Below, one piece after another: positions 10,709 through 40,317 of a stretch of DNA of 64,000 bases. A program made the position numbers and the translations under genes. Location: the NCBI GenBank assembly GCA_902766005.1, contig CACXCB010000039.1, positions 1 through 64,000 of the forward strand, read 5' to 3'. Origin of the DNA: an uncultured Erysipelotrichaceae bacterium (GTDB taxonomy: Bacteria; Bacillota_I; Bacilli_A; Erysipelotrichales; Erysipelotrichaceae). Under the pieces are notes generated by a model. The model saw nothing but the letters and a program-made list of their open reading frames with translations, had not been told where the DNA came from and ran no database searches. How positions within the stretch are numbered: the stretch's first letter is position 1; every line of letters begins with the position of its first letter.

Positions 10709-10715
10709 AAGGAAT

Positions 10716-10802
10716 CGTTTTGTAAACTCCCTACGCTGGCATGATCCAGATCAGGTGATAAGGGTCTTTCTCAGCACTATGGCACCCCTGTTCACGCAAA
10801 CG
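10716..10802 (-). ncRNA. TPP riboswitch (THI element) upstream of thiT
   Basis: The minus strand carries the conserved THI-box blocks in order: GGGGTGC, CTGAGA, ACCC, then ACCTGATCTGGATCATGCC and GCGTAGGGA. P1 is formed by GTGAAC and GTTTAC plus CGTTT and AAACG. A promoter -10 TATAAT (10803-10808) with -35 TTCCAT 17 bp upstream lies just before it, inside the end of the neighbouring gene. No terminator hairpin follows; control appears to act on translation through the 10689-10708 hairpin. Confidence 0.95.
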
Positions 10803-34650: not shown

Positions 34651-34794
34651 TCATTCTGTTGATTTATATAGTTTCAATCCTTTAACAGCTTCAGGCATCT
34701 TTTCTTGATATGAATATTTTGAAGATGGACGATTGGCTGTCTCTTTAGCTGATTTAACGCAGATTTTCACTACTGTTCGAAATAATACATTCAT
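34651..34794 (-). CDS. agrD: AgrD-like autoinducer peptide precursor (47 aa, Ser core)
   Basis: A 47-residue ORF overlaps the end of agrB by 41 nt and has AAAGGAG 9 nt upstream, inside agrB, so it is translated from the same mRNA. It has the AgrD layout: an amphipathic N-terminus with charged ends (residues 1-20, VVKICVKSAKE), a small core around NRPSSKYSY (21-29) and a C-terminal recognition tail QEKMPEAVKGLK with the expected acidic residues and Pro. There is no Cys in the core, the normal thiolactone residue; Ser24/Ser25 would give a serine lactone, as in S. intermedius AIP and E. faecalis GBAP. It is too short for most gene finders. Confidence 0.7.
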   Translation of the reverse strand: MNVLFRTVVKICVKSAKETANRPSSKYSYQEKMPEAVKGLKLYKSTE

Positions 34795-35353
34795 TTTTCA
34801 GCACTCCTTTCCTAATTCGGTACTTTTGAAACATGCAAAGAACCATTAACCATGCCATTGCCATAAGAATCATACCCTTAGGGATTTGAGATCTAATGAT
34901 CTGTAAAAATAAATATAAAACCAATAGCAACGTGAGCCTGATTTTTGCATATATACTATAAAGACCTATTTCTTTAGCATTCAAAATCTGATTCTCATTT
35001 TGAACCGGGGAAACAACAAATAGATACATGAATGGAATCGTAATCCAACAATAATGTAAATTTGATACATATTTTTCAGCCAAACAGCTCAATATGACCA
35101 TGAAGATTGTAACCAATCCACACTGGATAAGTGTTTTGCAATGATATCCTCCACAATAAGATCTTAAAAATGTAAAACTGCAAATAAACACAACACCTTC
35201 TTGCAACTTGTGGAGGCATGCACACAAGAACAAAATAATCAGGGTTTCTAGCCAAAATGCAATTTCAACTTTTAAGCCATACAGAACGATATTAAAATCA
35301 ATTTGAAGTTCAGTAGAAGCATTGTGCAGTTTATCAACAAACCATTGCATCAT
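34754..35353 (-). CDS. agrB: AgrB-type autoinducer-processing membrane protease
   Basis: The 199-residue protein is membrane-embedded with about four to six helices. The AgrB catalytic pair is plain: the segment RSYCGGYHCKT has the cytoplasmic His/Cys (GGxHxKT preceded by a Cys) that cut AgrD at its C-terminus and form the ring. AAGGAG lies 11 nt before the ATG-ATG start. The -10 TATCAT (35378-35383) and -35 TTGCAT (35400-35405) sit upstream with a 16-bp spacer, and a direct repeat pair (35413-35445) lies beyond. The downstream agrD overlaps its end. Confidence 0.85.
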   Translation of the reverse strand: MMQWFVDKLHNASTELQIDFNIVLYGLKVEIAFWLETLIILFLCACLHKLQEGVVFICSFTFLRSYCGGYHCKTLIQCGLVTIFMVILSCLAEKYVSNLHYCWITIPFMYLFVVSPVQNENQILNAKEIGLYSIYAKIRLTLLLVLYLFLQIIRSQIPKGMILMAMAWLMVLCMFQKYRIRKGVLKNECIISNSSENLR

Positions 35354-35377: not shown

Positions 35378-35405
35378 ATGATAGGCATCTAAGAAACAAA
35401 TGCAA
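35378..35405 (-). promoter_or_regulatory. Promoter of agrBD
   Basis: On the minus strand TTGCAT (-35, 35400-35405), a 16-bp spacer and TATCAT (-10, 35378-35383), 24 nt before the agrB start. Only a weak -35, which suits a promoter needing an activator at the direct repeats just upstream. Confidence 0.55.
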
Positions 35406-35412
35406 TAGGAGT

Positions 35413-35445
35413 GGGACATTTGGTAGGCTTTTGGGATATTTGGTA
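35413..35445. repeat. Direct repeat pair upstream of agrBD
   Basis: GGGACATTTGGTA (35413-35425) and GGGATATTTGGTA (35433-35445) are 12/13 identical with a 20-bp period, between agrB and the divergent response regulator gene. On the minus strand they read TACCAAATRTCCC and lie 8 bp upstream of the agrBD -35. They share an ATCCC core with the repeats at 38592-38626. Two-turn spacing suits LytTR dimers. Confidence 0.6.
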
Positions 35446-35479: not shown

Positions 35480-36178
35480 ATGAATATAGCCATATTGGAT
35501 GATGATATTATATTTCTTAATCTGTTTAAAAAACAATTATCTGCCTATTTGGATAATGATGTTCCATTAACATATACCAAACCAGAGAATCTTTTGACAG
35601 CCTTAAAAAACAGAGAATTTGATGTTATTTTTTTAGATATTGAAATGCCGGAAACTGACGGTTTGACAATAGCAAGACAATTATATCAGGATAATTGTCA
35701 TTCCATGATTGTTTTTATTACCAATCGCTCGGAATTAGTATATAAAGCTTTTGGATTAAACATTATTGGTTTTATTGTAAAATCAGAGATGAATGATCAA
35801 TTACCTCATGTAATGGATAAAATAAATACAGAATTACAGTCTATGCATTATATAACTGTTGAAACTAGAGAAAAAAGCAACCAGAAAATTCAAATATCTA
35901 ATATCTTATTTGGAGAAATTGTGACTAGAAAAGTCTTTCTTTATTTGTTGAACGGCAAAAGAATTGAACTAAAAACCAGAATTATTGGAGAAATTTACCA
36001 ATTGTTGCCTGAAAAACAATTCATTTTCTGTAACCGTTCCTGTTTTGTCAACATTAAAATGGTAGAAAGAATTACTGATTATCATTTATTTTTAAAAAAT
36101 CAAACAGATCCAATAGACATCAGCTCAGCGAGAAGAAAGGATATTAAAAATGCTTATTTTAATGAAAGATTTTTATAA
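35480..36178 (+). CDS. LytTR-type response regulator (AgrA-like)
   Basis: The 232-residue protein has a receiver domain (acidic DDD at 7-9, phospho-acceptor Asp53 in FLDIEMP, Lys in FIVKSE near residue 102) and a C-terminal LytTR DNA-binding domain (~135-232, with FCNRSCFVNIKMVERI). LytTR regulators bind 9-bp direct repeats about two helix turns apart. It is divergent from agrBD, and its putative promoter lies within the same intergenic DNA as the 35413-35445 repeats. The -10 candidate TATTAT is close to the start; the ribosome site AAAGAGG is 12 nt away. Confidence 0.88.
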   Translation: MNIAILDDDIIFLNLFKKQLSAYLDNDVPLTYTKPENLLTALKNREFDVIFLDIEMPETDGLTIARQLYQDNCHSMIVFITNRSELVYKAFGLNIIGFIVKSEMNDQLPHVMDKINTELQSMHYITVETREKSNQKIQISNILFGEIVTRKVFLYLLNGKRIELKTRIIGEIYQLLPEKQFIFCNRSCFVNIKMVERITDYHLFLKNQTDPIDISSARRKDIKNAYFNERFL

Positions 36179-37453
36179 TCCTTCTTTTAATATTGCTGTA
36201 GCGAAAAAATAGCCTTCATTAAGATTAACAATTAAAAATCCCCCATGTTTTTCGCATAACAAATTAACTGATTGTAATCCAATGCCATGGTTCTTATAAT
36301 CTTTTTTCCACGTCTCAAGTTCTACCTTTTTTTTATCCGTCGTGTTTTTTACATTTATTTCAAGACTAGTGTCTTCCTGGCTTATTTGTAGAATTATTTC
36401 TTTCTTTTCTTTGCTGATATTTTCGATTGCATTATCCAAAAGATTCCCAAGAATTAAAGCAATATCATATTCTGTTTCTTTAGAAAAATCTTTGATAGCT
36501 GTAATTGTTTTAACTATAATACCTTTTTCTTTTGCCTGGCTAACTTTCGAAGAAATGATTGCATCGATTGCTGTTTTTCCAGTATTAAAAATAACAGGTG
36601 ACTGTTCTAGAAGATTAATATCCATTTTTAACTGTTCTTGACATTTTTTTATTTCACCAGCGTCCAAATATCCGTTTAATATGGTGAACTGATTTTTCAA
36701 ATCATGTCTCATTGTACGAATTTCTTGTTCCTTCTTATTGAATTCTTCAGCAAAACGCTGAATGTTCGTCAACCGCTCTGCCAATAATTTATTTTCCATT
36801 AACTGAAAACTATCATACGTAGATTTGCAGAACAAATAATACGTTACCAATGATATTCCTGATATTAATAAATTGACAAAAACCAGTAAAAGGAAATGTT
36901 CCGATTCATTATAAATAACATTCTCAATAAGAGCTGTGATACCACAAAGAACCGCAAACAGAAACACAAAGAAAACTGAATACTGTGAATCCATTTTTCT
37001 GTATTTTTTTGAGAATTTGGCCATGGCAAGCATAATTATAGATAAGAAAAATCTCGAACAAATAAATCGATATATTACAGGTACTTGAATCAATGCCTCA
37101 CTTGCAGTAATTCCTAAAAAAGAGTAAATCAAAGTTAATGTTATTTCATTACCTGTGCTGATTAAAGTGTATAGCTGAATAATATATATTAAATTTGTAA
37201 ATGTATTATTAGCTTGGCTTTTATCTTCACAATAATGAGTAATAAAAAATGATAAAGCAATGAAAACAAATGAATATAAGCCATCGTAAATTCCAAAATA
37301 GTTAAATAATGTTATTTCAGAAGAAATAATAAAACTATAAATAATATAGAAATATATTTTTTTCTTTTTTTGTATATCTACAAATCTACTGATCAAGTAT
37401 GCATATAGTAACCCTTCTGCTATATTTATGCATATGTCCATCATGCCAATCAT
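36173..37453 (-). CDS. GHKL sensor histidine kinase, AgrC-like
   Basis: About 426 residues. The first ~230 are six or seven membrane helices, as in AgrC. The cytoplasmic part has the modified H-box RTMRHDLKNQF (His ~252 in the frame) and the GHKL ATP-binding elements LILGNLLDNAIENI and HGIGLQSV, with no canonical N/G1/F/G2 domain. This would sense a peptide and phosphorylate one or both LytTR regulators. The ATG at 37453 follows AGGTG by six. It overlaps the first regulator (6 nt at 36173-36178, convergent) and follows the second regulator in the XRE operon. Confidence 0.9.
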   Translation of the reverse strand: MIGMMDICINIAEGLLYAYLISRFVDIQKKKKIYFYIIYSFIISSEITLFNYFGIYDGLYSFVFIALSFFITHYCEDKSQANNTFTNLIYIIQLYTLISTGNEITLTLIYSFLGITASEALIQVPVIYRFICSRFFLSIIMLAMAKFSKKYRKMDSQYSVFFVFLFAVLCGITALIENVIYNESEHFLLLVFVNLLISGISLVTYYLFCKSTYDSFQLMENKLLAERLTNIQRFAEEFNKKEQEIRTMRHDLKNQFTILNGYLDAGEIKKCQEQLKMDINLLEQSPVIFNTGKTAIDAIISSKVSQAKEKGIIVKTITAIKDFSKETEYDIALILGNLLDNAIENISKEKKEIILQISQEDTSLEINVKNTTDKKKVELETWKKDYKNHGIGLQSVNLLCEKHGGFLIVNLNEGYFFATAILKEGL

Positions 37454-37458
37454 AGTTA

Positions 37459-38160
37459 TCACCTGTATTTAAAAGTATAATACATATTCTGGAATGATGT
37501 GAACAAATTTCTAGAAACTGATAAATGTATACCGGATTTTAAAATAATGATTTGTTTATGACAGGATTCTATTTCCTTCAAATTAACAATTTCCCCCTGA
37601 TTAATCCGAACAAAATCGAACCTCTTAAGTATGCCGGTTAACGAAAGAAACTCTTTCATACTCATCCTTAAATTTATATCACCATTCTTCGTATGAATAA
37701 TAAGGTTATTATGATTGCATTTAATGTACTCTATTTCACTCGATGAAATTTGAAATCTTCTATTCATTAATTCTAACGTAATATTATCTCTTGTTTCCTT
37801 TAGATACCTTCTAATCACTCTTTCCGTTTCTTCTTGAATTAAAGATTTTCGCAAAAAATCATATGCGTGATTTTGATAGGAAGAAAAAACATATTCTTCT
37901 ATTGATGAGACGAATACAATTTTTCCGATAGCCTCTCTAAATACTCTCTCAGATAGTTCAAATCCGTTAATTAATGGCATTTGTACATCTATGAAATATA
38001 AATCATAATCTTTAATTGTGCAAACCTCACCATTTGTGTAATAATCTGCATGAATTTCAATATTCATTTTTTCGGAAATTGAATGCAATAGAAGATGCAT
38101 CATATTTAAATATTCCGAATCGTCATCGAAGACGCATATTGTTATTTTATTTTTTTCCAT
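37459..38160 (-). CDS. LytTR-type response regulator, second copy
   Basis: About 233 residues with a receiver (FDDDSE, phospho-acceptor Asp ~58 in FIDVQMPLINGF) and a C-terminal LytTR domain (ISSSEIEYIKCNHNNLII, then GEIVNLKEIESC). It differs clearly from the 35480 regulator, so this is not a recent duplication. The ATG at 38160 overlaps the XRE stop by 14 nt; the ORF's 17 extra codons are unlikely. It lies in one unit: XRE regulator, this regulator, kinase. Confidence 0.88.
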   Translation of the reverse strand: MEKNKITICVFDDDSEYLNMMHLLLHSISEKMNIEIHADYYTNGEVCTIKDYDLYFIDVQMPLINGFELSERVFREAIGKIVFVSSIEEYVFSSYQNHAYDFLRKSLIQEETERVIRRYLKETRDNITLELMNRRFQISSSEIEYIKCNHNNLIIHTKNGDINLRMSMKEFLSLTGILKRFDFVRINQGEIVNLKEIESCHKQIIILKSGIHLSVSRNLFTSFQNMYYTFKYR

Positions 38161-38497
38161 GGAGTTTTCTGAATTGATCTGCCACAAGATTGAGAATGTA
38201 TATTTCTTCATCTGTCAAATCACTGTCATCTACTACAGGTCTTTTACGTGGTGATCCTTGTAAAAAAAACATATTCTCAAAAGTAACTTTATAGATTCTT
38301 AAGGCACTAGCAATATTATCATAGGACATATTACCATCCCCTCTCTCCCATCCTCCATATGTTCTGACTGTGACACCAAATTTATTTGCACACTGTTCCT
38401 GGGTATAATTATGTTGTTCACGATAATACTCTAAGCGATTCAATGGTGTCCGATCTGGCCTCTCATTTTTATTCTTACCCTTTTTTTCTTTTTTCAT
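38147..38497 (-). CDS. XRE-family helix-turn-helix regulator
   Basis: The 116-residue protein has a lambda-repressor-like HTH at residues ~18-75: LNRLEYYREQHNYTQEQCANKFGVTVRTYGGWERG is the classic XRE pattern. The first ~18 residues are highly basic (KKEKKGKNKNERPDRT). The last ~35 residues are an acidic helical tail. GAGGGTGAGGAG precedes the ATG by ~8 nt. It heads the operon with the second LytTR regulator and the kinase, so it is probably a circuit regulator, possibly autoregulated at the 30-bp palindrome just upstream. Confidence 0.88.
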   Translation of the reverse strand: MKKEKKGKNKNERPDRTPLNRLEYYREQHNYTQEQCANKFGVTVRTYGGWERGDGNMSYDNIASALRIYKVTFENMFFLQGSPRKRPVVDDSDLTDEEIYILNLVADQFRKLHGKK

Positions 38498-38558
38498 AAT
38501 AGTATCTCCTCACCCTCAGGAGCAATCGTAAATGACAGGCACAAAAATATGTATGTAA

Positions 38559-38588
38559 CTAAAACAGGAAGAAATCTTCCTGTTTTAG
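38559..38588. repeat. Perfect 13-bp inverted repeat upstream of XRE
   Basis: CTAAAACAGGAAG and CTTCCTGTTTTAG are perfect reverse complements around an AAAT loop, 62 bp upstream of the XRE start. It can form a strong hairpin, but its position before the gene also suits a dimeric XRE operator. A transcription barrier between the XRE operon and the secreted-protein operon is a third reading. Confidence 0.6.
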
Positions 38589-38591
38589 TGA

Positions 38592-38626
38592 TTCGATCCC
38601 AAAATCGTTTATTTCAATCCCAAAAT
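38592..38626. repeat. 14-bp direct repeats at 21-bp spacing, LytTR-site candidate
   Basis: TTCGATCCCAAAAT (38592-38605) and TTCAATCCCAAAAT (38613-38626) differ at one base and are exactly 21 bp apart, two turns of DNA. The second repeat runs straight into the -35 of the secreted-protein promoter, matching how LytTR activators (AgrA at P2/P3) bind. It lies in the gap between the XRE operon and the secreted-protein gene, so it could serve both. Confidence 0.65.
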
Positions 38627-38654
38627 TAACCATGACTAGATAAATCTATATATT
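38626..38654 (+). promoter_or_regulatory. Promoter of the leader peptide/secreted protein
   Basis: TTAACC (-35, 38626-38631), a 17-bp spacer and TATATT (-10, 38649-38654). The direct repeats end on the -35. The transcript would begin near 38661 and carry a leader of ~345 nt before the secreted gene. Confidence 0.55.
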
Positions 38655-38682
38655 ATAAAGCCACAAAGGAAAGGAAACTATC

Positions 38683-38727
38683 ATGTATATATCAAGGTAT
38701 AAAAACGGTGACAGTTTGCACAATTAA
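38683..38727 (+). CDS. Possible 14-residue leader peptide
   Basis: An ATG at 38683 opens MYISRYKNGDSLHN and stops at 38725-38727. AAAGGAAAGG lies 8-9 nt upstream, the best ribosome site in the leader. It is too short to be a normal protein and has no signal-peptide features. A leader peptide or spurious ORF are both possible; translation could influence the downstream stem. Confidence 0.35.
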   Translation: MYISRYKNGDSLHN

Positions 38728-38827
38728 CAAATGACAGTCATATATCATTATCCATTTTGTTCATAAATGGGCATCAACCAAAAAAATATAATGATAATAT
38801 GACGCCATTCCTCAATTACAAAGCATT

Positions 38828-38912
38828 AGGACTGTATAAACTATAAAAGAACTAATAGTTTCATTTTCTATTAAATTCAATTACATTTTTAAAAATTCCA
38901 ATGTACAGTCCT
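38828..38912 (+). repeat. Long-range inverted repeat in the 5' leader of the secreted gene
   Basis: AGGACTGTA (38828-38836) pairs perfectly with TACAGTCCT (38904-38912), with a smaller AACTAT/ATAGTT stem inside. In the long gene-free gap 38498-39006 the repeats, promoter, mini-ORF and this structure are all I can see; the 38728-38827 and 38913-39000 stretches are AT-rich with a possible second promoter (TTGTTT, 17 bp, TATTAC) near 38932-38960. Confidence 0.4.
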
Positions 38913-39006
38913 TGCGGAAAGATTGTTTGTTTGCTCCATATCATATATTACGAAGGAATAATTACTGATAAATAATTTAATGAAATTTTAGAAACGGAGA
39001 ATGTCA

Positions 39007-39816
39007 ATGAAAAAATTATTAAACAAGATAATTAAGCTAACTGCAATAGCTTGCTTAATCACAAACTTCATACCTGTTCATGCTGAAGAAATGAGTGGAA
39101 TTGAAATGTCAGCAAATTCCATCTCTGTAAACTCAAACACATTTCAAACACTTATAGAAAATGGGAATATTCCTAGAGAAGTTTTAGATTATATTATCGA
39201 AACACAAAGAACTTACCCAGATGCTGAGATCACAATCACATCAGATCTTTTACCTTCAGGAGAAGCTTCGCCCAACATTAATTATACTAATTTAAGAACA
39301 TATGGGGGATGCCAGCTGGCCGACTGGGTTGTACATGTTAGTACAGCACATAATATGCAAAATATCCTTACTGGGTCTTCAGCGGGAGGTTTTGCCCAAT
39401 ACCTGGCATATTATTTAGGTTCCTCCTTCATTTTTCAGAAGGTTCCCTTTGCCAGTGCTGCCATGACTGCTGCTGAATATATACTTAATACCAATGCCTA
39501 CACAGCAAAAGCTGGAGATAAATTAAATGCAGCACCTGCATATTCCACATATACAAAGTATACATACGTGAAATGGAATGGGAACTGGACTCTTGGCGTT
39601 CAATCATTTAACGCCACAGTTACGACAATATCTTGGTATTTGTATTTGCAATCTACGGGAACACAATATACAGCAACTAGAAGTTATAACCAGAATCTTA
39701 AAAGTTCACACTATAATTCTCCTGATTCAGCAGCTGTTCAAAATTATCAATCTGGAGGGATTATTGATACAAAGCCAAAAATAAAAATTGGTTCTGTCTA
39801 TTTCAACTTATATTAA
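39007..39816 (+). CDS. Secreted protein of unknown function, agr-linked
   Basis: The precursor has about 269 residues with a clear Sec signal peptide (KKLLNKIIKLTAIACLITN, then IPVHA with cleavage before EEM). The mature part has a hydrophobic middle (about residues 120-165: ILTGSSAGGFAQYLAYYLGS, then SSFIFQKVPFASAAMTAAEY) and a beta-rich, Tyr/Trp/Ser/Thr-heavy C-terminus. It has one Cys. The layout recalls the geobacillin-26-like secreted proteins, but I am not sure. The ATG at 39007 has GGAG 7 nt upstream and is preferred over the one two codons before. It is the only gene behind the repeat-bearing promoter, so it is the likely output. Confidence 0.75.
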   Translation: MKKLLNKIIKLTAIACLITNFIPVHAEEMSGIEMSANSISVNSNTFQTLIENGNIPREVLDYIIETQRTYPDAEITITSDLLPSGEASPNINYTNLRTYGGCQLADWVVHVSTAHNMQNILTGSSAGGFAQYLAYYLGSSFIFQKVPFASAAMTAAEYILNTNAYTAKAGDKLNAAPAYSTYTKYTYVKWNGNWTLGVQSFNATVTTISWYLYLQSTGTQYTATRSYNQNLKSSHYNSPDSAAVQNYQSGGIIDTKPKIKIGSVYFNLY

Positions 39817-39831
39817 GTTATAATAGTTTTC

Positions 39832-40287
39832 ATGAAAAGAAAATATAAAATACTCATCGGCTTAGTCGTTTTTCTTGGCATATTTATGATTTTCCGTTTT
39901 CTGGACAACGGCATAACTGTACATGGCAATGATCTTTTGAAAAATCTGCCTGATACCCTTCCGAATGTATCATCCGTAGAAATCATGGATGTAACAGGAA
40001 AGCAGAAAGATTTTGAAATGACTGCAGGAGATGTCAAACAATTATATGCCATCCTGGCTGAAGGAGAGTTCCAAAAAATACGTGAAGAAAAATATCATGG
40101 AACATTTTCCGGTGACAGGGTTGACATAAACATTCCTGGTGAAAACAATCACTTCTACTTTATCGAAATCTGCGATTACAAAAAAATGACGATTCAGGAT
40201 TTCGGATCAGATACAGAATCATATTATGAAATCATAAGCGAAGAAACCAAAACAAAACTGGAAAAACTATTTATCGCATATCAATAA
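39832..40287 (+). CDS. Membrane-anchored protein of unknown function
   Basis: The 151-residue protein starts KRKYKILIGLVVFLGIFMIF, one N-terminal membrane anchor with the bulk outside. The rest is alpha/beta and soluble, with a VEIMDVTGK strand followed by a helical part and a beta-rich C-terminus. No known motif. It starts 15 nt after the secreted protein's stop and has no own promoter signal visible, so it may be co-transcribed with it (for example as an immunity or accessory protein, a guess from position). It ends at a strong terminator. Confidence 0.65.
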   Translation: MKRKYKILIGLVVFLGIFMIFRFLDNGITVHGNDLLKNLPDTLPNVSSVEIMDVTGKQKDFEMTAGDVKQLYAILAEGEFQKIREEKYHGTFSGDRVDINIPGENNHFYFIEICDYKKMTIQDFGSDTESYYEIISEETKTKLEKLFIAYQ

Positions 40288-40317
40288 AAGCATCAGATTT
40301 TGCTCTGATGCTTTTTC
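40287..40317. terminator. Convergent terminator after the agr island
   Basis: AAAGCATCAGA pairs with TCTGATGCTTT around TTTTGC. It ends the 151-aa gene and the convergent MFS gene. Confidence 0.85.

What the first reader, a model, noticed from the sequence alone, without database searches (positions are those of the whole stretch)
38626..39816. Secreted protein with a long structured leader behind the repeat-bearing promoter
About 345 nt lie between the promoter and the secreted gene. The leader has a 14-codon mini-ORF with the best ribosome site in the region and a 9-bp long-range stem (38828-38836 with 38904-38912). This suggests post-transcriptional control, or a second internal promoter near 38932-38960. 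The product is a signal-peptide protein with a hydrophobic middle, possibly bacteriocin-like, and a membrane-anchored 151-aa protein follows 15 nt later, a layout typical of toxin and immunity pairs. That reading is inference.
Basis: inference. Interest (0 to 1): 0.65.

Follow-up and report, generated by a model that had tools for sequence, protein, structure and literature searches.

The report
Quorum-controlled secreted protein, probable bacteriocin
A gut-type bacterium carries a previously undescribed secreted protein, most likely a weapon against rival bacteria with its own protection protein, that appears to be switched on by a neighbouring chemical population-sensing system rather than by a structured RNA leader.

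Summary
The layout is real: repeat-bearing promoter, ~340-nt leader, secreted 269-aa protein, and a membrane-anchored 151-aa protein 15 nt later. The leader argument is weak: it folds no better than shuffles, the 9-bp stem is near chance, and the mini-ORF's ribosome site is not the best in the region. What matters lies next door: an agr-type quorum-sensing cassette (agrB, an agrD-like gene with Ser in place of Cys, GHKL kinase, two LytTR regulators, XRE regulator). LytTR-style paired half-sites ([TA][ACT]CCAAA, 20-21 nt apart) occur twice in 64 kb: before agrB and before the secreted gene, each pointing at its gene. The only relative found, in Anaerorhabdus furcosa (28% identity), follows an AgrD-like gene by 15 nt and also precedes a single-TM 153-aa protein, although the two small membrane proteins are not detectably homologous. 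The protein matches no Pfam, NCBIfam or PDB entry and is not a geobacillin-26 family protein (positive control 123.6 bits). Best reading: a rare family of agr-controlled, Sec-secreted proteins, probably bacteriocins with a membrane immunity protein. Quorum control is well supported by anatomy; antibacterial function is inferred.

The parts
34651..34794 (-). agrD-like autoinducer precursor, 47 aa, putative core SSKYSY followed by QEKMPE (Ser where staphylococcal AgrD has Cys)
   Evidence: ORF; 16 of 22 residues identical without gaps (counted by eye on the alignment) to the AgrD of another agr locus of the same genome (L009). Not reported by TIGR04223 at E<=1, so called by position and motif.
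34754..35353 (-). agrB, processing protease/exporter
   Evidence: PF04647 83.8 bits, cut-off 23
35417..35445 (-). paired LytTR-type half-sites TACCAAATA-11-TACCAAATG, 11 bp upstream of the -35 (TTGCAT-16-TATCAT, 35378-35405) of agrB
35480..36178 (+). LytTR response regulator 1
   Evidence: PF00072 and PF04397; 34% identity over 102 aa to a response regulator cut by the end of the A. furcosa contig
36173..37462 (-). AgrC-like GHKL histidine kinase
   Evidence: PF14501 66.3 bits
37459..38211 (-). LytTR response regulator 2 (true start probably near 38160)
   Evidence: PF00072 and PF04397
38147..38497 (-). XRE-type HTH regulator, divergent from the secreted gene
   Evidence: PF01381 36.1 bits
38558..38589 (.). 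perfect palindrome, 15-bp arms, 2-nt centre; candidate operator
   Evidence: 0 of 500 shuffles
38597..38626 (+). paired LytTR-type half-sites TCCCAAAAT-12-TCCCAAAAT
   Evidence: only exact copy in the own genome
38626..38659 (+). candidate promoter (TTAACC-17-TATATT or ATGACT-16-TATAAA)
38683..38727 (+). 14-codon leader ORF MYISRYKNGDSLHN, significance unproven
38828..38912 (+). 9-bp long-range stem (arms 38828-38836 and 38904-38912), near chance
39007..39816 (+). secreted 269-aa protein (signal peptide about 1-27), probable bacteriocin
   Evidence: no family in Pfam/NCBIfam/PHROGs/PDB; relative in A. furcosa, 28%, E 1.8e-28
39832..40287 (+). 151-aa protein with one N-terminal TM segment, candidate immunity protein
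   Evidence: hydropathy; two credible relatives in the genus
40286..40315 (+). intrinsic terminator at the end of the pair

Best explanation
An agr-type quorum-sensing cassette controls a two-gene effector operon. AgrB (shown by family) would process the AgrD-like peptide into a Ser-lactone signal (inferred). The GHKL kinase would sense it and phosphorylate a LytTR regulator (inferred from family), which would bind the paired CCAAA boxes upstream of agrB (positive feedback) and of the secreted gene (boxes shown, binding inferred). The operon makes a Sec-exported protein of about 27 kDa, most likely a large unmodified bacteriocin acting on competing Gram-positive bacteria (inferred), and a single-TM protein that most likely gives the producer immunity (inferred). 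The long leader is most likely just an untranslated region; no regulatory role was demonstrated.
For: agr cassette. Paired half-sites occur only twice in the window, both at cassette promoters and co-oriented with their genes; 4 of 200 shuffles reach two; no pair at the other 28 spacings tested. The 9-12-9 geometry matches published LytTR sites (PMC6193735, passages). The A. furcosa relative sits 15 nt after an AgrD-like gene and precedes a single-TM 153-aa protein. Patchy distribution: 2 of 315 genomes of the order; AT-rich segment, 28-35% G+C against about 40-43% around it. Credible relatives of the TM protein in two further genomes of the genus that lack the secreted protein, as orphan immunity genes would be.
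Against: No homology or fold match to any known bacteriocin. The TM proteins of the two loci are not detectably homologous (BLASTP E 6.7). The window agrD is not reported by the AgrD model at E<=1. The half-site pattern was derived from the two sites it finds. Window and A. furcosa differ in cassette order, and the A. furcosa contig ends just before the AgrD-like gene. No expression or activity data.
Confidence: 0.52

Rival explanations
1. Same quorum control, but the secreted protein is not antibacterial: a surface, adhesion, matrix or host-interaction factor, with the single-TM protein as a helper or membrane partner.
For: No similarity to any bacteriocin family; agr systems commonly control exoproteins (established knowledge); TM-protein relatives occur without the secreted protein.
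Against: Rare and patchy presence, AT-rich segment, two-gene layout with its own terminator, same layout in a second genus.
Confidence: 0.28
2. The leader is the control point: the mini-ORF and the long-range stem regulate translation or elongation.
For: Mini-ORF and stem exist; with at least 4 G/C such a stem is seen in only 34 of 2000 shuffles.
Against: Fold z -0.36; 1038 of 2000 shuffles hold a perfect 9-bp inverted repeat; no Rfam family in the region. The relative's upstream is an AgrD-like gene at a contig end, so leaders could not be compared.
Confidence: 0.07
3. The repeats are operators of the divergent XRE regulator (or of an unknown factor), and the agr cassette is merely a neighbour.
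For: The XRE gene is adjacent and divergent; a strong palindrome lies between.
Against: Paired boxes of the same motif lie upstream of agrB, 3.2 kb away, and the direct-repeat spacing fits LytTR dimers; the palindrome is the more likely XRE site (inference).
Confidence: 0.12
4. A distant member of the geobacillin-26 family of class III bacteriocins.
For: Similar size and a Sec signal; an active member, alicyclobacillin 24, is described in PMC13176240 (outline with abstract, passages and section 3.3 read).
Against: No match to NF035925 at E<=10, while Ali24 scores 123.6 bits; no BLASTP similarity to Ali24.
Confidence: 0.04

Closest known systems
agr-type quorum sensing (agrBDCA and agr-like loci of Firmicutes)
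   Same: AgrB family, AgrD-like precursor overlapping the end of agrB, GHKL kinase, LytTR regulator, paired boxes before agrB
   Different: Two LytTR regulators and an XRE regulator; split gene order with divergent units; Ser in the peptide core (as in three other AgrDs of this genome); an adjacent secreted effector operon with the same boxes
LytTR-controlled bacteriocin promoters and LytTR Regulatory Systems (PMC6193735, passages)
   Same: Two 9-bp direct repeats about 12 bp apart, just upstream of the -35
   Different: Half-site TCCCAAAAT/TACCAAATA instead of ACCACTTAT-like; regulator belongs to an agr-type two-component system
Dysgalacticin / DysI (class III; PMC8308785, passages)
   Same: Sec-exported large protein with an adjacent gene for a membrane-associated immunity factor
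Geobacillin 26 / alicyclobacillin 24 (NF035925; PMC13176240)
   Same: Sec signal, secreted protein of about 24-27 kDa
   Different: No sequence match

Membership tests
agr-type quorum-sensing system | AgrB protease/exporter | tested here: met
   PF04647 83.8 bits, cut-off 23
agr-type quorum-sensing system | AgrD precursor recognised by the family model TIGR04223 | tested here: not met
   C39 not among the matches at E<=1; called instead by position and by gapless similarity to the AgrD of another locus of the genome
agr-type quorum-sensing system | GHKL kinase and LytTR response regulator | tested here: met
   PF14501, PF00072, PF04397
agr-type quorum-sensing system | secretion and sensing of a cyclic peptide | not testable with these tools
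   needs mass spectrometry and a reporter
LytTR-controlled promoter | two direct repeats 11-13 bp apart | tested here: met
   12 bp (secreted gene) and 11 bp (agrB) apart
LytTR-controlled promoter | repeats end some 4-11 bp upstream of the -35 | tested here: inconclusive
   11 bp for agrB; 0 or 5 bp for the secreted gene, depending on which -35 is chosen
Geobacillin-26 family (NF035925) | score over the curated cut-off of 40 bits | tested here: not met
   no match at E<=10; positive control Ali24 123.6 bits
Class III bacteriocin | large (over about 10 kDa) exported protein | tested here: met
   269 aa; mature about 26.7 kDa with an assumed cut after residue 27; N-terminal hydrophobic segment and VHA motif; no SignalP available
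Class III bacteriocin | antibacterial activity | not testable with these tools
   needs purified protein
Class III bacteriocin | dedicated immunity gene alongside | tested here: inconclusive
   a single-TM protein follows in both loci, but the two are not detectably homologous
Dysgalacticin / streptococcin A-M57 | sequence similarity | not tested
   record not held

The most novel reading that the evidence does not exclude
The two proteins found a new family of large Sec-secreted bacteriocins under direct control of an agr-type Ser-lactone quorum system, with signal precursor and weapon physically linked in A. furcosa (15 nt apart) and tied by shared LytTR boxes in the window genome, so that signal and weapon may be inherited and diversify together.
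Probability: 0.4. Interest if true: 0.62.

Novelty: new variant of a known kind. Interest (0 to 1): 0.45.

Why it matters
If true, it adds a protein family with no detectable relative outside two genomes to the small set of large secreted bacteriocins, and gives one a testable regulator: a review (PMC8308785, passages) says that regulation of the streptococcal class III bacteriocins has not been worked out. It also gives a handle on peptide signalling in Erysipelotrichaceae, a gut family.

Tried and rejected
Leader as riboswitch or structured RNA: no Rfam match there, z -0.36. Internal promoter at 38932-38960: none at 9 of 12. Geobacillin-26 membership: rejected. Wide searches without new relatives: 72,556 plasmid and 50,697 phage records, viral contigs, genome contigs (patterns fell in the signal peptide; one search gave only A. 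furcosa), 392 genomes drawn from the phylum (the genome itself plus one short match with four stops, dropped as chance).

Structure: single-sequence model pLDDT 32.4; two-sequence model pLDDT 56, pTM 0.55, with two helices and three long strands, but no Foldseek match under E 0.1 and no VIA Z over 6.6 (best rows actin capping protein, within the range that tool calls common); no fold is claimed.

Synteny by the neighbouring MFS gene: 15 loci of the genus (59-70% identity), none with any other tested window gene (14 proteins) within about 1.5 kb, so uninformative. The ORF about 490 nt upstream of the TM homologue in another genome of the genus (L071 9926-10465) has no family and no BLASTP similarity to the secreted protein. 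The TM protein gave no match in plasmids or viral contigs.

Paper searches: Erysipelotrichaceae+bacteriocin+agr 8 papers, Anaerorhabdus+bacteriocin 10 (8 listed), class III bacteriocin+quorum sensing+agr 3, AgrD+Erysipelotrichaceae+serine 0, cyclic lactone autoinducer peptide+bacteriocin+LytTR 1; from listings, abstract starts and passages of the last none describes this pair. Not all literature is held.

Full report
What is there. The secreted ORF is 39007-39816 (+); ATG 39007 fits the GGAG at about 7 nt better than ATG 39001. The 151-aa ORF starts 15 nt later and an intrinsic terminator closes the pair at 40286-40315. Upstream on the other strand are an XRE regulator (38147-38497), a LytTR response regulator (37459-38211) and a GHKL kinase (36173-37462); a second LytTR regulator (35480-36178, +) and agrB (34754-35353, -) lie further up. 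An overlooked 47-aa ORF (34651-34794, -) overlaps the end of agrB and has an AgrD-like C-terminus, NRPSSKYSYQEKMPEAVKG. The segment is AT-rich: 28-35% G+C in the three 2-kb steps from 34 to 40 kb, against 41-43% in the steps on either side.

Leader. The leader folds no better than dinucleotide shuffles (z -0.36, 34 of 100 shuffles at least as stable). 1038 of 2000 shuffles hold a perfect 9-bp inverted repeat; 34 of 2000 hold one with at least 4 G/C, as here, a threshold chosen after seeing the stem. The mini-ORF's ribosome site is about equal to that of the secreted gene and weaker than those of XRE, agrB and agrD. No internal promoter-like site lies at 38932-38960, and no Rfam family matches (the only hit in the window is a TPP riboswitch far away).

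Promoter boxes. The repeat TCCCAAAAT-12-TCCCAAAAT (38597-38626) has the geometry of LytTR sites, two 9-bp repeats about 12 bp apart just upstream of -35 (PMC6193735, passages read). A perfect 9-mer repeated at 20-22 nt occurs in 97 of 5000 shuffles of this intergenic region. It is the only exact copy in the held genome; the other five matches there, at three mismatches, are no more than the reversed control gives (6 in all against 6). The agrB/regulator-1 intergenic region holds a second pair on the agrB strand, TACCAAATA-11-TACCAAATG, 11 bp upstream of TTGCAT-16-TATCAT; a near-repeat this good occurs in 1 of 2000 shuffles. The joint pattern [TA][ACT]CCAAA at 20 or 21 nt occurs twice in the window, at these two places, each on the strand of the gene it precedes; 4 of 200 whole-window shuffles reach two, and no pair occurs at the other 28 spacings tested. 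The pattern was made from the two sites, so these figures are generous to it. The word TTTTGGGAT alone is not significant in the window (4 matches; 9 of 100 shuffles reach 4). Upstream of three other agrB genes of the same genome that the script could orient (L023, L026, L028, of five others found) a direct-repeat scan found no CCAAA pair.

Relatives. The secreted protein has no match in Pfam, NCBIfam, PHROGs or the PDB (the one weak NCBIfam row has E 0.027, 14.3 bits against a cut-off of 330). In the order, 2 of 315 held genomes have it: this one and G112, 28% identity over the whole length, E 1.8e-28. G112 is Anaerorhabdus furcosa ATCC 25662, contig NZ_FUWY01000011.1, Erysipelotrichaceae in the NCBI taxonomy; the window's genome is in the same family by the tool's coding. 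There the gene is preceded at 15 nt by a 36-aa AgrD-like ORF, MKIVKK...SKYRAYEPRPIKKK, at the very end of the contig, and followed after 79 nt by a 153-aa protein with one N-terminal TM segment. The same contig carries response regulators and kinases similar to those of the window, at 23-34% identity. AgrD-like peptides of three other agr loci of the window's genome also have Ser five residues before the conserved Tyr, so the Ser core is usual in this genome.

The TM protein. It has no family. BLASTP finds no similarity between the window and A. furcosa TM proteins (E 6.7), so what is shared is layout, size and topology, not proven homology. Of 315 genomes of the order, 8 match at E<=0.01: this one, two credible ones in the genus (G057 40%, E 2.4e-11, cut by the contig end; G021 27%, E 3.3e-8) and five weak ones (E 0.001-0.008) that I do not count. 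Both credible genomes gave no match for the secreted protein. This fits orphan immunity genes, but also a protein with an unrelated job.

Mechanism. Shown: the cassette, the boxes, the gene pair, the relative with a linked AgrD-like gene. Inferred: cyclisation through Ser, sensing by the kinase, binding of a LytTR regulator to the boxes, co-transcription of the pair, antibacterial activity, immunity. The two-sequence AlphaFold model (pLDDT 56, pTM 0.55) is too weak for a fold; Foldseek gave nothing below E 0.1 and VIA nothing over Z 6.6.

Comparison with known systems. It works like an agr-controlled effector locus; the agr membership tests on AgrB, kinase and regulators are met, the AgrD family model is not. 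The effector resembles class III bacteriocins in size and export, and dysgalacticin/DysI in having an adjacent membrane protein gene (PMC8308785, passages), but could not be compared with dysgalacticin by sequence. It is not a geobacillin-26 family protein: no match at E<=10 against NF035925, whereas alicyclobacillin 24 scores 123.6 bits, and no BLASTP similarity to that protein.

Caveats. The held genome is 4.05 Mb in 366 contigs with 6.46% estimated contamination, larger than most members of its genus, so the owner species of this contig is not certain. Only two sequences of the family are known, so conservation arguments are thin.

Noticed in passing
window 38558-38589: Perfect 15-bp-arm palindrome ACTAAAACAGGAAGA/TCTTCCTGTTTTAGT between the XRE gene and the LytTR boxes; 0 of 500 shuffles. 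Candidate operator of the XRE regulator.
   Followed up: partly
window 35480-36178 and 37459-38211: Two LytTR response regulators for one kinase; an activator/repressor split as recalled for plantaricin PlnC/PlnD is possible (recalled, no call).
   Followed up: no
window 10711-10799 (-): TPP riboswitch, 66.7 bits.
   Followed up: no
L071 9926-10465 (-): Open frame of 179 codons, no family, about 490 nt upstream of a TM-protein homologue and near genes that look like IS21-type transposition genes (named from reading) in another genome of the genus; may be the remnant of a different secreted protein.
   Followed up: partly
L028, upstream of agrB at 1229: Seen by eye: ACCACTTGT-11-ACCAGTTAT, close to the published LytTR consensus, before another agrB of the same genome.
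   Followed up: no
G000 C51, C75, C217, C252, C294, C39: Six agrB-like genes in one assembly, with several Ser-core AgrDs.
   Followed up: partly
L003 10628-12911 and L005 1715-8344: The A. furcosa contig with the relative also carries an ABC transporter of lantibiotic-immunity type next to a two-component pair, and a 2209-aa repeat-rich surface protein (names from reading the sequences, not from a family search).
   Followed up: no
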